Source: Marinobacter sp. DY40_1A1 (GTDB lineage Bacteria; Pseudomonadota; Gammaproteobacteria; Pseudomonadales; Oleiphilaceae). From it: a DNA stretch of 64,000 nt. The translations under genes and the position numbers were made by a program. Location of the stretch: the NCBI RefSeq assembly GCF_016597815.1, contig NZ_VCHA01000001.1:434001-498000 (forward strand), in the 5' to 3' direction. Shown here one piece after another: positions 184-44,153 of the stretch (the stretch's first letter is position 1; every line of letters begins with the position of its first letter). The notes below the pieces were generated by a model. That model searched no databases, was not told where the DNA came from, and worked only from the letters and a program-made list of their open reading frames with translations.

Positions 184-292
184 GGCGGAGCGGGGACCCC
201 TTCCCAAAAAGCGCCCGTGAATACGTCCATGTAGGGCTCGGTCGGGCCATCCTTGGCCCTCCACGTTTTTGGGAAGGGCTCCCCGCTCCGCC
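184..292 (-). repeat. hairpin element HA-1 (type A)
   Basis: Left arm 184-210 and right arm 266-292 are inverted repeats of 27 bp with one mismatch. The inner arm ends are CCCAAAAA and TTTTTGGG. The 55-nt core (211-265) reads in the minus direction and contains GGGCC-AAGGAT-GGCCC followed by TAC-ATGGAC-GTA, two stem-loops with GGA in the loop. The core is identical to that of HA-3, but the outer arms are unrelated. The GGA strand is the same strand as phoH, so it would appear in the phoH leader RNA. Confidence 0.9.
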
Positions 293-424
293 CCTATTCA
301 AACTATGTGCTGGCCGAAAATTTAAAAACAAGTAATCGGTAGCAATTTGATGGTTTGGTGACTTAAATCTGATATCAGGTCAGCTATGTGGAACAGTTTT
401 TTGCATGCCGCACTGAACTACGCC

Positions 425-534
425 GAGAGTGGTGGTGGCTTCCTCCCAAAAATGTCTTCGGCCAAGGAAGGCCGAAGACAAGCGCACATGGATGTGCTCG
501 TAGCGTTTTTTGGGAGGAAGCCACCACCGCTCTC
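425..534 (+). repeat. hairpin element HA-2 (type A)
   Basis: Arms 425-452 and 507-534 pair over 28 bp with a single G-T wobble. Core 453-506 holds an 11-bp stem TGTCTTCGGCC / GGCCGAAGACA with loop AAGGAA, then GCACATGGATGTGC, a hairpin with TGGA in the loop. The right arm ends 34 bases from the miaB stop codon. Its GGA strand is antisense to miaB and phoH, which makes it the only type A copy not in the sense of a neighbouring transcript. Confidence 0.9.
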
Positions 535-568
535 ATACTCCGGGCTTCAATCACATGGGAGCCGAAGC

Positions 569-1915
569 TCAATAAAGCACCGAATCCACAGGTAAACCAC
601 GAAGAGAGTTGGCGTAAGCCTCAACTATCTCAACGTCGATGAAGTGCCCAACAATCCCCGGATTCTCATGCCGGAAATTCACAATCCGGTTGTTCTCCGT
701 GCGCCCGGAATACTCACCAGGGTCCTTCTTCGATAGCCCGGTTACCAGAATGCGCTGAGTGGAACCCACCATCTTGCGGCTGATGTCCATCACCGTCTGA
801 TTGATCCGATCCTGAAGGATTTTCAGGCGCTGTTTCTTAACTTCCATCGGCGTTTCATCAGGCAAATCCGATGCCGGCGTACCCGGGCGGGCGCTGTAAA
901 CAAAGCTGAAGGACATATCGAAACCGATATCGTTGATCAGCTTCATGGTGTCTTCGAAGTCTTTCTCGGTTTCACCCGGGAAGCCAATGATAAAGTCTGA
1001 AGAAAAGCTGATATCCGGACGAATCTTGCGCAGGCGACGAAGCTTGGATTTGTACTCCAGGGCCGTATGGCCGCGCTTCATGGCGGCCAGAATGCGATCC
1101 GAGCCGCTTTGTACCGGCAGGTGCAAGTGGCTGACCAGCTCGGGCACCTGTTCGTAAACCTCAATCATTGCATCAGTAAATTCAACCGGATGCGAGGTGG
1201 TGTAGCGGATGCGATCAATGCCGTCGATGGTGGCGATCAGGGTAATCAATTCCGCCAAATCCATTACGTCGCCATCGTGAGTCTCGCCACGATAGGCGTT
1301 TACGTTCTGGCCTAGAAGATTCACTTCCCGCACGCCCTGGCTGGCCAGGTGCGCAACTTCGGCAATCACGTCGTCTGCCGGACGGCTGACTTCTTCGCCT
1401 CGGGTGTAGGGAACTACGCAGAAGGTGCAGTATTTGCTGCAACCTTCCATGATGGAAACAAAGGCGGACGGGCCATCGGCACCGGGGTCCGGCAGGTTGT
1501 CGAACTTTTCGATTTCCGGGAAGCTCACATCCACCACGCCTACGCCGTTACCTTTCACGCGCACTTCGGTAATCATATCCGGCAGGCGGTGCAGGGTTTG
1601 CGGGCCGAAGACCATGTCGACATAAGGCGCCCGGTCAAGAATGGCCTGGCCTTCCTGGCTGGCAACGCAGCCGCCCACGCCGATGATCAGCTCTGGCTTG
1701 TTCGCTTTGAGCTTTTTCCAGCGACCCAGCTGGTGGAACACTTTTTCCTGGGCTTTTTCACGGATGGAGCAGGTGTTCAGCAGCAGGATATCTGCGTCTT
1801 CAGGCGTTTCGGTCATTTCTACCGCTTCGCCGGTTTTAAGCAGGTCGGCCATGCGGGATGAATCGTATTCGTTCATCTGGCAACCGTGGGTTTTGATGTA
1901 CAGCTTTTTGGCCAT
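569..1915 (-). CDS. miaB: tRNA-2-methylthio-N6-dimethylallyladenosine synthase
   Basis: MiaB is a radical-SAM methylthiotransferase that converts i6A37 to ms2i6A37 in tRNAs reading UNN codons. The product has 448 residues, close to the family length. The N-terminal MTTase domain carries the three auxiliary-cluster cysteines C12, C49 and C83. The radical SAM motif CSKYCTFC supplies C159, C163 and C166, and a TRAM RNA-binding domain closes the protein. The start at MAKKLYIKTHGC is chosen because family members begin there; a longer upstream reading frame adds 35 residues without family resemblance. The gene is flanked by hairpins HA-2 (3') and HA-3 (5'). Confidence 0.97.
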   Translation of the reverse strand: MAKKLYIKTHGCQMNEYDSSRMADLLKTGEAVEMTETPEDADILLLNTCSIREKAQEKVFHQLGRWKKLKANKPELIIGVGGCVASQEGQAILDRAPYVDMVFGPQTLHRLPDMITEVRVKGNGVGVVDVSFPEIEKFDNLPDPGADGPSAFVSIMEGCSKYCTFCVVPYTRGEEVSRPADDVIAEVAHLASQGVREVNLLGQNVNAYRGETHDGDVMDLAELITLIATIDGIDRIRYTTSHPVEFTDAMIEVYEQVPELVSHLHLPVQSGSDRILAAMKRGHTALEYKSKLRRLRKIRPDISFSSDFIIGFPGETEKDFEDTMKLINDIGFDMSFSFVYSARPGTPASDLPDETPMEVKKQRLKILQDRINQTVMDISRKMVGSTQRILVTGLSKKDPGEYSGRTENNRIVNFRHENPGIVGHFIDVEIVEAYANSLRGLPVDSVLY

Positions 1916-2246
1916 GGGTCTCAACACAACTGGATGTATTTGGCGCCCGGAACAGAAACTGTCCAGATTGCGCGCTGATAAAGGAGAACTGGGTATTATA
2001 ACGGGGTGATCAATCTGCAACCAGTGTTGTCTCGGTAATCTGCCAGTTTTGCTGTGGTATTATTCCGGCGTTTAAGTTTCGGAGTCAGAAGCGATTGGTG
2101 CAGGGCTCTCCAAAAAGCGCCCGTGAATACGTCCATGTAGGGCTCGGTCGGGCCATCCTTGGCCCTCCACGTTTTTGGAGAGCCCTGCACCAATCGCTTC
2201 GTCGAGCTTCGGTGGATTAATCTCTTACTACAAACTTCACAAGACT
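1916..2246. other. divergent miaB / trmH intergenic region
   Basis: This 331-bp spacer must hold the promoters of both miaB (minus) and trmH (plus). Its main content is hairpin HA-3, which occupies the trmH-proximal third. No convincing -35/-10 pair was identified by eye for either gene. Confidence 0.5.
2088..2200 (-). repeat. hairpin element HA-3 (type A)
   Basis: Arms 2088-2116 and 2172-2200 are perfect inverted repeats over 29 bp, ending inside with CCAAAAA / TTTTTGG. The 55-nt core 2117-2171 is identical to that of HA-1, in the same orientation, while the outer arms share no sequence with HA-1. It ends 46 bases before the trmH start codon. The GGA-loop strand is the miaB sense strand, upstream of miaB. 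Its position between divergent genes argues against a simple terminator role. Confidence 0.92.
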
Positions 2247-42780: not shown

Positions 42781-42835
42781 TTTTGGTCAGTTTCAAAATG
42801 ACCCGAAATGCATGAATATATCACCTTAATCTGCA

Positions 42836-42947
42836 GGCAGTTGGGACAGTATTTGCTCCGGGAATGTCGGAGGCCATGGACGGCCGGAGACAAGCGCACA
42901 TGGATGTGCTCGTAGCGGTTCCCGGAGCAAATGCTGTCCCAGCTGCC
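42836..42947 (+). repeat. hairpin element HA-6 (type A)
   Basis: Arms 42836-42864 and 42919-42947 pair over 29 bp with two G-T wobbles. Core 42865-42918 has TGTC..GGCC-ATGGAC-GGCC..GACA and GCACATGGATGTGC. The inner arm CTCCGGGAA resembles HA-7, while the outer arm is private. It separates hisD from hisC; the hisC ribosome binding site starts ten bases after the right arm. Confidence 0.92.
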
Positions 42948-42967
42948 GTCTCCATTGGAGCAAAAAA

Positions 42968-44020
42968 ATGAGTAAATTCTGGAGCCCCCTGGTCAAGAGC
43001 CTGGTTCCTTATGTACCAGGCGAACAACCCAAAATGGCCAACCTGGTAAAACTGAATACCAACGAAAACCCATTTGGCCCATCGCCAAAGGTAATTGAGG
43101 CCATCCAATCTGAACTCAATGACAGCCTGCGCCTATACCCGGATCCCGAAGGCGAAAGCCTGCGCCAGACCATCGCCGGCTATCACAACGTAAAGCCCGA
43201 GCAAGTCTTTTTAGGCAATGGCTCCGATGAAGTCCTGGCCCACATATTCTACGCACTGTTCCAGCACGGCCAGCCCGTGCTCTTCCCGGATGTAACTTAC
43301 AGCTTCTACCCCGTGTACTGTGGCCTTTACAACATCGAAGGCAAAACAGTACCCCTGACAGACAGCTTTGAAATCAACCCGGAAGACTACAAACAGCCTA
43401 ACGGTGGAATCATCTTCCCCAACCCCAACGCGCCTACTGGCCGTTACCTTGGGTTGGAGCATGTGGAGGCCATCCTTCAGGCTAACTCCGAACGTGTTGT
43501 TGTAGTTGATGAAGCCTATGTGGACTTTGGCGGCGAATCTGCCATCAAATTTGTGAATCAGTATCCCAACCTGCTGGTTTGTCAAACCCTCTCCAAAGCC
43601 CGCTCTTTGGCTGGTTTGCGGGTAGGCTTTGCCATCGGCCATCCGGACTTGATTGACGCACTTAATCGCGTTAAAGACAGCTTTAACAGCTACCCACTAG
43701 ACAGGCTGGCACAGGCGGGAGCACAAGCTGCTTATGAAGATCATGAGTGGTTCCAGAAGTCCTGCGAGGGTGTTATCTCTGAGCGGGAGCGCGTAACCAA
43801 GAGTTTGGAAAGCCTGGATTTTGAAGTTTTGCCCTCCAAGGCCAACTTCGTTTTTGCCCGCCACAAAGAAAGATCCGGCGGAAGCTTGGCAAAAGAATTG
43901 AGAGAGAAGGGAATAATCGTTCGTCATTTCAACAAGCCTAGAATCAGCGAGTTTTTGCGAATTACCATTGGTACTCCCGAGCAAAATGATGCGCTAATTG
44001 CCGGCCTTAAATCTCTGTAA
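42968..44020 (+). CDS. hisC: histidinol-phosphate aminotransferase
   Basis: HisC is a fold-type I PLP enzyme that transaminates imidazole-acetol phosphate with glutamate. The 350-residue protein has KLNTNENPFGPSPKV at the start and the PLP lysine in LSKARSLAGLRVGFAIG. GGAG lies eight bases before the ATG. It is enclosed by hairpins HA-6 and HA-7 in the same orientation. The first two thirds are A/C-rich on the coding strand. Confidence 0.96.
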   Translation: MSKFWSPLVKSLVPYVPGEQPKMANLVKLNTNENPFGPSPKVIEAIQSELNDSLRLYPDPEGESLRQTIAGYHNVKPEQVFLGNGSDEVLAHIFYALFQHGQPVLFPDVTYSFYPVYCGLYNIEGKTVPLTDSFEINPEDYKQPNGGIIFPNPNAPTGRYLGLEHVEAILQANSERVVVVDEAYVDFGGESAIKFVNQYPNLLVCQTLSKARSLAGLRVGFAIGHPDLIDALNRVKDSFNSYPLDRLAQAGAQAAYEDHEWFQKSCEGVISERERVTKSLESLDFEVLPSKANFVFARHKERSGGSLAKELREKGIIVRHFNKPRISEFLRITIGTPEQNDALIAGLKSL

Positions 44021-44039
44021 ATGACTGAAGTCTGATCAA

Positions 44040-44153
44040 GGCTGGCAGAGTGAGGGGGAGTTCCGGGAATGTCGTAGGCCAAGGACGGCCGGAGACAAGC
44101 GCACATGGATGTGCTCGTAGCGGTTCCCGGAACTCCCCCTCACTCTGCCAGCC
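44040..44153 (+). repeat. hairpin element HA-7 (type A)
   Basis: Arms 44040-44069 and 44124-44153 are perfect inverted repeats over 30 bp, the longest in the set. Core 44070-44123 differs from HA-6 at two positions (GTA for GGA, AAGGAC for ATGGAC). It begins 19 bases after the hisC stop and ends 36 bases before the next gene. The GGA strand is the sense strand of the his transcript. Confidence 0.93.

What the first reader, a model, noticed from the sequence alone, without database searches (positions are those of the whole stretch)
184..44153. Family of dispersed hairpins with a constant core and private complementary arms
Seven intergenic elements (184-292, 425-534, 2088-2200, 14343-14452, 17854-17961, 42836-42947, 44040-44153) share a 54-55-nt core, yet each is enclosed by a different 27-30-bp inverted repeat. 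Pairing within a copy is perfect in HA-3, HA-4 and HA-7. In HA-2, HA-5 and HA-6 the only departures are G-T wobbles, and HA-1 has one mismatch. This is the reverse of a MITE, attC site or REPIN, where ends are constant and the middle varies. Either the arms are under strong selection for pairing, or insertion copies neighbouring DNA in inverted form. I know of no described mechanism that gives this pattern.
Basis: partly seen in the sequence, partly recalled or inferred. Interest (0 to 1): 0.93.

Follow-up and report, generated by a model that had tools for sequence, protein, structure and literature searches.

The report
Dispersed CsrA-docking hairpins on private stems
About twenty look-alike hairpins lie between genes in the stretches read of this Marinobacter genome, each with two small loops of the sequence pattern known to be bound by the regulator protein CsrA, and nearly all on a stem whose sequence is their own; they are likely RNA docking sites for CsrA, and the private but matching stems are then likely kept by selection for pairing alone.

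Summary
Comparing orthologous sites dissolves the puzzle. At one site the arms change between species by double, pairing-preserving substitutions; the core is at times exchanged between copies. Clean empty sites hold neither arm; scars with half an arm are deletions.

On one strand each core carries two C-ANGGAX-G hexaloops, the published high-affinity CsrA/RsmE site. Unpaired arm positions are G-U far more often than A-C on that strand (26:2 strand-neutral; 47:4 in 105 partly overlapping copies), even where it is antisense to both neighbouring genes (13:0). So a single-stranded form, most likely RNA, is selected. The nearest known family is Rfam TwoAYGGAY (RF01731), already proposed to bind CsrA; the best genus score seen is just under its cut-off (41.7 against 43 bits).

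New here: high copy number, strand independent of gene direction, head-to-head pairs, a U-poor 3' tail, core exchange, and a long-core class. CsrA binding, transcription and effect on genes are untested.

The parts
182..294 (-). Element HA-1 (core type B), reading strand minus; downstream of miaB, head-to-head with HA-2 (129-bp spacer)
   Evidence: (106.9 bits)
424..535 (+). Element HA-2 (core type A), reading strand plus, antisense to miaB; arms covary across 17 species rows at this site
   Evidence: (111.1 bits)
2088..2200 (-). Element HA-3 (core type B, identical to HA-1's core), between divergent miaB and trmH; arms covary across 14 distinct species rows
   Evidence: (109.0 bits)
14342..14453 (+). 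Element HA-4 (core type A), between a LysR-type regulator gene and convergent gatB
   Evidence: (110.6 bits)
17852..17963 (+). Element HA-5 (core type A), between the gat genes (minus strand) and mreB (plus strand)
   Evidence: (112.7 bits)
42836..42947 (+). Element HA-6 (core type A), between hisD and hisC; absent as a clean junction in G034 and G059
   Evidence: (108.6 bits)
44041..44152 (+). Element HA-7 (core type A), between hisC and a Nif3-like gene; the same gap in G022 and G008 holds an element of opposite orientation with other arms
   Evidence: (114.3 bits)
453..506 (+). Core of HA-2 as example: two predicted hairpins GGCC-AAGGAA-GGCC and CAC-AUGGAU-GUG with GGA loops

Best explanation
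Each element is likely one copy of a dispersed RNA module that docks a CsrA/RsmA dimer: read on one strand, its constant core is predicted to fold into two hexaloop hairpins of the form C-ANGGAX-G about 24 nt apart, on top of a stem of about 20-30 bp whose sequence would be free as long as it pairs. Shown by the calls: the two ANGGA motifs in the core on one strand only, pairing-preserving evolution of the arms at fixed sites, G-U tolerance on that same strand, occasional exchange of the core between copies while arms stay with the site, a U-poor 3' tail, and close pairs that in this genus were head-to-head in every case examined. Predicted: accessibility of the GGA loops. Inferred: that this strand is transcribed, that CsrA binds it, and that many copies together hold back (titrate) CsrA, in a genus where Rfam's CsrB, RsmZ and RsmY models stay below their cut-offs in the 31 genomes searched. 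Arms would then be private because only pairing is selected and paralogous sites diverge freely, while the core is constrained by the protein and partly homogenised by exchange. Why pairs are head-to-head and why the 3' tail lacks U is not explained.
For: Loops: each of 55 model-found copies has at least two ANGGA in its core on the reading strand and none on the other; the GGA of the first two is predicted unpaired with mean probability 0.89 (n=110) against 0.23 for 139 other GGA in the elements. In alignment A1 loop position 2 takes G17/A18/T19 and G17/A3/T32/C2, while the A, GG, A and the closing C-G are fixed but for one cell: this is the published high-affinity form, an ANGGAX hexaloop directly on a stem with N and X variable (PMC4005645 passages), and type A hairpin 2 (ACAUGGAUGU) fits the SELEX consensus RUACARGGAUGU but for the base at R; a dimer can bridge sites 10-63 nt apart (PMC7652899 passages). 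Single-strand selection: G-U against A-C at non-Watson-Crick arm positions 58:5 (45:2 without two decayed copies; 13:0 in the 12 copies antisense to both genes), 26:2 strand-neutral and 13:1 in the own genome alone, 12:0 in 17 distinct copies from outside the genus (after leaving out two genus rows and one duplicate of its 20), 47:4 in 105 type A copies from named records, partly the same genomes. Covariation: 98.6% of cells paired, score 0.714 against 0.171 shuffled over 54 copies; within one site 72 double-change cells against 23.1 and 87 against 26.3. Core exchange: own HA-1 and HA-3 cores identical with outer arms 0.64, while HA-3 orthologues in G034/G027/G057 differ in core (0.89/0.87/0.89) but share arms (0.93/0.93/0.91). 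csrA present in the own genome. Rfam CsrB, RsmZ, RsmY: 0 of 31 genomes over cut-off each. Sub-cut-off TwoAYGGAY matches, clan CL00106.
Against: No transcript evidence at all. No sigma-70-like promoter enrichment upstream (mean best score 5.46, antisense 5.35, shuffled 5.68; n=55). The reading strand is not tied to gene direction: 12 of 55 copies are antisense to both neighbours and 10 sense to both, which a plain mRNA-leader model does not predict. Head-to-head pairing is unexplained by a sponge. Two otherwise intact elements lost one motif (L026 HA-1, L052 HA-2), and the long-core class keeps 0-2 ANGGA, mostly one. One search's orientation step used the motif itself, so its counts, and A1's 54 rows chosen from it, are partly by construction; searches also use a model or pattern made from such copies. 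Core exchange is occasional: only 5 of 28 within-genome pairs of sites have cores at least 0.96 alike, and at HA-1 the core stays type B in the genomes compared. At HA-3 one shuffle measure is weak (further pair types reached by 21 of 500 shuffles). The absence of other sponge RNAs is weak: RsmY gives sub-cut-off matches in 25 of 31 genomes and RsmZ in 7, control genomes ring too, and no control genome scores over the cut-off for RsmZ or RsmY. Some genus members have only 3-11 model hits.
Confidence: 0.6

Rival explanations
1. Cis-acting switch: each element with its U-poor, C/A-rich tail is a CsrA-dependent transcription-termination or stability device for the transcript that runs through it, much as CsrA exposes rut sites in the pgaA leader.
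For: 3' 60 nt on the reading strand have T 0.143 against 0.236 on the 5' side in 105 copies, with C above G; the 3' arm is C-rich (0.42) and the 5' arm G-rich (0.45) overall and in the four main gene contexts; CsrA-driven Rho termination at pgaA is in print (PMC7652899 passage); sites and strand are conserved across species at HA-2 and HA-3.
Against: U depletion is not a hallmark of rut sites (recalled); strand is independent of gene direction; no termination data.
Confidence: 0.2
2. Plain structural RNA: bidirectional 3'-end hairpins that stabilise or end transcripts, with the GGA loops serving something other than CsrA.
For: All 55 are intergenic by my gene calls, and 30 of the 31 with an opposing downstream gene lie 8-66 nt from its stop codon; predicted folding energies of the seven window copies are -70 to -88 kcal/mol.
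Against: No T run follows the stem as a rule; a symmetric terminator would not need a strand-specific ANGGA, G-U asymmetry or U-poor tail on one side.
Confidence: 0.12
3. Mobile or selfish DNA that acts as folded single-stranded DNA (REP/REPIN- or attC-like), with copies spread by a transposase or integrase.
For: High copy number, head-to-head pairs, presence/absence among close relatives; G-T tolerance would also fit a single-stranded DNA hairpin.
Against: Ends are private and the middle constant, the reverse of such elements; no arm in the clean empty sites; arms evolve in place by double changes; the four low-copy genomes on a one-gene tree fall in two clades nested among high-copy ones, which looks like loss; no match on 72,556 plasmid or 50,697 phage records for one copy.
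Confidence: 0.06
4. No selection: template switching at quasi-palindromes keeps arms perfect as a mutational by-product.
For: Known to correct imperfect palindromes (recalled); inner arm pairs change on both sides with no wobble intermediates in A1 (columns 21-31).
Against: A correction process has no reason to leave G-U and not A-C on the GGA-motif strand whichever way the element lies.
Confidence: 0.02

Closest known systems
TwoAYGGAY RNA, Rfam RF01731, clan CL00106 (Weinberg et al. 2010, PMC2864571; CsrA-binding proposed by Gardner and Eldai, PMC4333381)
   Same: Two small hairpins with GGA hexaloops on a long outer stem that is poorly conserved; listed for Gammaproteobacteria; marked 'n' for cis-regulatory in the 2010 table; other genera of the order have copies above the cut-off, many also as head-to-head pairs.
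   Different: Best seen in this genus 41.7 bits against a gathering score of 43 (0 hits in the window); loop position 2 is any base, not Y; shorter core (54 nt); own inner-arm consensus YTTYC..AAAA; 3-120 model hits per genome, echoes included.
RsmX/RsmY/RsmZ and CsrB/CsrC sponge sRNAs
   Same: Several ANGGA hairpins per RNA that would hold CsrA/RsmA dimers.
   Different: Two sites per copy and tens of copies, no promoter signal found, long closing stem; Rfam models RF00166, RF00195, RF00018 not over cut-off in 31 genomes.
CsrA sites in mRNA leaders (glgC, pgaA, hcnA)
   Same: Hairpin-loop GGA bridged to a second site within 10-63 nt.
   Different: Not placed at ribosome-binding sites in a fixed way; as often antisense as sense to the neighbouring genes.
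REP/REPIN/BIME and MITEs
   Same: Intergenic, palindromic, high copy, some in inverted pairs.
   Different: Constant middle and private ends; in-place compensatory evolution; no arm in the clean empty sites.

Membership tests
TwoAYGGAY RNA (RF01731) | Score at or above Rfam's gathering cut-off (43 bits) | tested here: not met
   Window: 0 hits. Genus loci: best 41.7 bits. In the order 9 of 115 genomes have hits over the cut-off, none of them among the 4 genus members in that search (22 candidates scored per genome).
TwoAYGGAY RNA (RF01731) | Two hairpins with AYGGAY loops | tested here: inconclusive
   Two ANGGAN hexaloops in all 54 aligned copies, but loop 1 position 2 is G or A in 35 of 54, loop 2 in 20 of 54.
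TwoAYGGAY RNA (RF01731) | Outer stem, not conserved in sequence | tested here: met
   31-pair outer helix, 28 pairs with changes on both sides; PMC4333381 speaks of an external stem not well conserved.
CsrA/RsmA-binding RNA | ANGGAX hexaloop directly on a C-G-closed stem, two sites 10-63 nt apart | tested here: met
   54 of 54 rows of A1 but for one closing G (rows chosen with the motif); 54 of 55 model-found copies have two CANGGANG; spacing about 24 nt; criteria from passages of PMC4005645 and PMC7652899.
CsrA/RsmA-binding RNA | Binding by CsrA | not testable with these tools
   Only the gene is shown: G000:C13:83219-83374, 65-aa protein.
RsmZ / RsmY / CsrB | Rfam model over its cut-off | tested here: not met
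   0 of 31 genomes each, tested on whole genus genomes; sub-cut-off matches in 7, 25 and 1 of 31.
REP/REPIN or MITE | Constant ends, variable middle; insertion with defined ends | tested here: not met
   Ends private, middle constant; empty sites at HA-4 and HA-6 lack most of the gene gap, not a unit with defined ends.

The most novel reading that the evidence does not exclude
Marinobacter and relatives run their Csr system with a distributed sponge: instead of one or two RsmZ/CsrB RNAs, tens of CsrA-docking cassettes sit in intergenic gaps on either strand, often in head-to-head pairs so that transcription from either side yields a sense copy at its far end, each with a U-poor tail. The core is a swappable cassette (types A, B, C and a long-core form with an extra ~80-nt domain in the second hairpin) passed between sites by short-tract exchange while the arms stay with the site, so the genome can retune many docking sites together.
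Probability: 0.27. Interest if true: 0.87.

Novelty: new variant of a known kind. Interest (0 to 1): 0.66.

Why it matters
It adds evolutionary evidence to a function proposed in 2014 for an RNA family described in 2010, shows how a genome-wide repeat can have a constant middle and private perfect arms without any exotic insertion mechanism, and points to a possible further layout of the Csr system (many dispersed docking sites instead of a few sponge RNAs), which one pull-down and one stranded RNA-seq experiment could test. The strand-specific G-U/A-C test used here can separate single-strand-level from double-strand-level palindromes in other repeat families.

Tried and rejected
Own promoter in front of each element: no enrichment of sigma-70-like sites over the other strand or shuffles. 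An outer TTCGG/CCGAA clamp seen by eye in the flanks: 5 of 55 with a shared 5-mer against 8.3 when partners are re-dealt, dropped. Tying the reading strand to the neighbouring gene: not supported. Insertion that copies flanking DNA: no arm in clean empty sites (the longest exact piece of the outer 18-nt HA-6 arm anywhere in 70 kb of G034 is 12 nt, in G059 9 nt). Plasmid and phage carriage: no match for one copy, HA-4. Rfam microRNA and Yersinia sRNA hits are far below their cut-offs and taken as chance (any long hairpin or coding stretch). Gene names for 14519-17449, first guessed from memory as gua genes, were wrong: they are gatB and gatA. Direction of gain or loss at HA-6 is open: G059 groups with the own genome on a one-gene tree, G034 with G027, yet both share the same empty junction.

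Limits of counts: one search's 3-120 hits per genome include opposite-strand echoes of one place (26 of 81 hits are such echoes) and stop at 122 scored candidates; cap scoring at 33, 22 and 20 per genome and the place lists are cut. The stretches (20) were chosen partly because they held visible clusters. Searches use the same 55 copies and several are orthologues, so they are not independent. Two decayed copies (L087:19650, L096:16949) are in the 58:5 count and give 13 of its G-U and 3 of its A-C. One search reported 115 stretches; one search read 80 of them (79 Marinobacter, one Haliea), left out one copy with a weak stem, and some of those genomes are also among the 55 copies' sources. In one search, 28 loci were looked at, 8 without a found stem were dropped, two of the 20 rows (L144, L148) are from the genus itself and L150 repeats L112. 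The long-core class was read in 28 of 30 loci; L202 and L203 were off centre and not resolved. Outside the genus the lists hold same-direction close pairs (G151:C1:5751755 and 5752205; G237:C321:371 and 653), so head-to-head is not universal there.
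Full report
What is there. All seven hairpins are confirmed at the stated coordinates. Two core patterns account for them: type A in five copies, type B in two (184-292 and 2088-2200); neither core pattern occurs in 100 shuffles of the window. Type B on the plus strand is the reverse of a relative of type A, so the reading strand of those two copies is minus. Rfam at its own cut-offs finds nothing in the window.

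More copies. The own genome (3.86 Mb) has 18 places with the type A pattern and 5 with type B at up to 3 mismatches; all but two (L002, L018, decayed) are enclosed by 19-31-bp complementary arms that differ from copy to copy. A covariance model (R1, 112 positions, built from 54 copies) gives hits in 31 of 31 genus genomes, in 35 of 115 genomes of the order at E<=1e-8 and in 28 of 185 of the class at E<=1e-9, the own genome counted each time. One search's counts per genome (3 to 120) are inflated by opposite-strand echoes and capped. The genus is Marinobacter: contig lengths of G008, G009, G018 and G059 equal those of Marinobacter records.

How the arms evolve. The miaB locus was compared in 30 genomes (59 of 61 have the gene; 30 loci held); 23 of 30 carry at least one element hairpin there. 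Taking one site at a time, HA-3 (16 rows, 14 distinct) has 97.5% of arm cells paired, 15 of 29 pairs with a change on both sides, and 72 double-change cells against 23.1 when partners are shuffled, though one of the five measures, further pair types, is reached by 21 of 500 shuffles; HA-2 (17 rows) has 96.1%, 16 of 29 and 87 against 26.3. The reading strand is the same in all rows at both sites. So arms are inherited with the site and change in compensated pairs. Over 54 copies the covariation score is 0.714 against 0.171 shuffled and at most 0.166 when the register is slid.

Which strand. At arm positions that are not Watson-Crick, G-U outnumbers A-C on the strand that carries the GGA loops: 58 to 5 of 1430 cells in 55 model-found copies (45 to 2 without two decayed copies), 26 to 2 when the stem is delimited with a strand-neutral rule (own genome alone 13 to 1), 12 to 0 in 17 distinct copies from outside the genus, and 47 to 4 in 105 type A copies from named records that overlap in part with the first set. 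On double-stranded DNA a G-T on one strand is an A-C on the other, so this asymmetry shows selection on one single strand. It holds for the 12 copies that are antisense to both neighbouring genes (13 to 0). RNA is the likely form; single-stranded DNA is not excluded by this test alone.

What the core looks like. On that strand each core is predicted to form two hexaloop hairpins. In A1 the columns read C-A-N-G-G-A-X-G in both, N being G/A/T in loop 1 and all four bases in loop 2. In 55 model-found copies the core has at least two ANGGA on the reading strand and none on the other, and their GGA is predicted unpaired (mean 0.89) while other GGA in the element mostly are not (0.23). Passages of PMC4005645 give the high-affinity CsrA/RsmE site as an ANGGAX hexaloop directly on a stem with N and X variable; passages of PMC7652899 give the SELEX consensus RUACARGGAUGU, loops mostly of six, and dimer bridging over 10-63 nt. 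The two loops here are about 24 nt apart. The own genome encodes a 65-aa CsrA. Two copies at miaB lost one motif (L026, L052).

Nearest known. The only sensible Rfam echo is TwoAYGGAY, RF01731: 41.7 bits in L048 against a cut-off of 43. [quoted passage not shown] PMC2864571 (one table row seen) lists it for human gut, Gammaproteobacteria and Clostridiales. In the order 9 of 115 genomes have hits over the cut-off, many in head-to-head pairs. Because the cut-off is missed in the genus sequences tested I call it a variant, not a member.

Why the core is constant and the arms private. Cores can move between sites. In the own genome HA-1 and HA-3 have identical cores and unlike outer arms (1.00 and 0.64); the HA-3 orthologues in G034, G027 and G057 keep the arms (0.93, 0.93, 0.91) but not the core (0.89, 0.87, 0.89); G005 HA-2 and HA-3 cores are identical with arms 0.64; at HA-3, G005 and G018 share arms (0.89) but not cores (0.75). 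This is occasional: 5 of 28 within-genome site pairs have cores at least 0.96 alike. At HA-2 in G008 the two arms belong to different alleles. Exchange plus protein constraint would keep cores alike; arms need only pair.

Empty sites. HA-6 is absent in G034 and G059, where hisD and hisC nearly abut; HA-4 is absent in G027 and G057, where the genes abut; no arm is left. G059 and G034 at HA-2 keep half an arm: deletion scars. At HA-7 the same gap in G022 and G008 holds an element of opposite orientation with other arms and flanks. The four low-copy genomes on a miaB tree fall in two nested clades, which looks like loss, though one gene is weak evidence.

Strand, genes, pairs and tail. Of 55 copies, 18 are same/opposite to the upstream/downstream gene, 12 opposite/opposite, 12 opposite/same, 10 same/same, 3 unknown (my own gene calls). 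Close pairs (under 400 bp) in the genus are head-to-head in 10 of 10 and 17 of 17 in the named loci (overlapping genomes); outside the genus two same-direction pairs stand in the lists. The first 60 nt after the element are U-poor on the reading strand (0.143 against 0.236 before it; background about 0.24), and the 5' arm is G-rich, the 3' arm C-rich. No promoter signal was found. These points are unexplained and are the main reason for caution about how the elements act.

Function. I commit to CsrA docking and titration, with a CsrA-controlled termination device as the main rival. Single-strand selection is well supported by the calls; CsrA binding is inferred from a close motif match; titration is inferred from copy number, from the indifference to gene direction and from 0 of 31 genomes with CsrB, RsmZ or RsmY over cut-off. 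That last point is weak: RsmZ and RsmY have sub-cut-off matches in 7 and 25 of 31 genomes, control genomes ring in the same way, and no control genome scores over those two cut-offs; for CsrB one control does.

Literature. Searches for such repeats in print: 15 of 964 listed; 5 works of 7 papers; 1 of 1; 15 of 63; none; none of the listed titles describes dispersed CsrA-binding repeats in Marinobacter. This covers only the held open-access library. In Alcanivorax, passages of PMC9788540 report two CsrA-related sRNAs, not repeats.

Noticed in passing
L152:15812 (G022 HA-4), L156 (G008 HA-3), L177-L206; own genome G000:C11:184604-184631 and C14:173910-173937 (these two not inspected): A long-core class: an ~80-nt conserved domain (GCAAGCGTTTATGAAGC..AGCTTCATG..CAGCAATCTGTGATTGCTGGCCGGACC) sits at one exact spot in hairpin 2, in type A, B and C cores alike; core 130-138 nt in 24 of 27 measured, arms still private. 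Its pattern is in 39 of 61 genus genomes; 28 of 30 loci inspected all lie inside elements. No Rfam family of its own in 5 loci tested.
   Followed up: partly
window 3005-3092 and 4266-4356: A second hairpin family with constant core (AAAAAGATGTCTGAGCGMAGCGAGTT..TTTTT) and private arms, after trmH and beside a YejK-like gene; also near miaB in many relatives with differing but pairing arms (listing only).
   Followed up: partly
L036:1194-1281, L043:1333-1420, L044:3085-3170, L041:3104-3190: Another inverted repeat family (GTAGGTCGGATTAG..GTAATCC) beside miaB in some relatives.
   Followed up: no
L097, L098, L099, L101, L102, L103, L104 and window 182-535: The ten element pairs less than 400 bp apart in the fetched stretches are all head-to-head, in convergent, tandem and divergent gene settings, with spacers of 51-146 bp that look unconserved by eye.
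   Followed up: partly
after L097:11394, L099:5606, L102:7561, L103:13041 and window 14453: At many sites that face an opposing gene a motif GGCTAGGGCC lies about 15 nt after the element on the reading strand (by eye).
   Followed up: no
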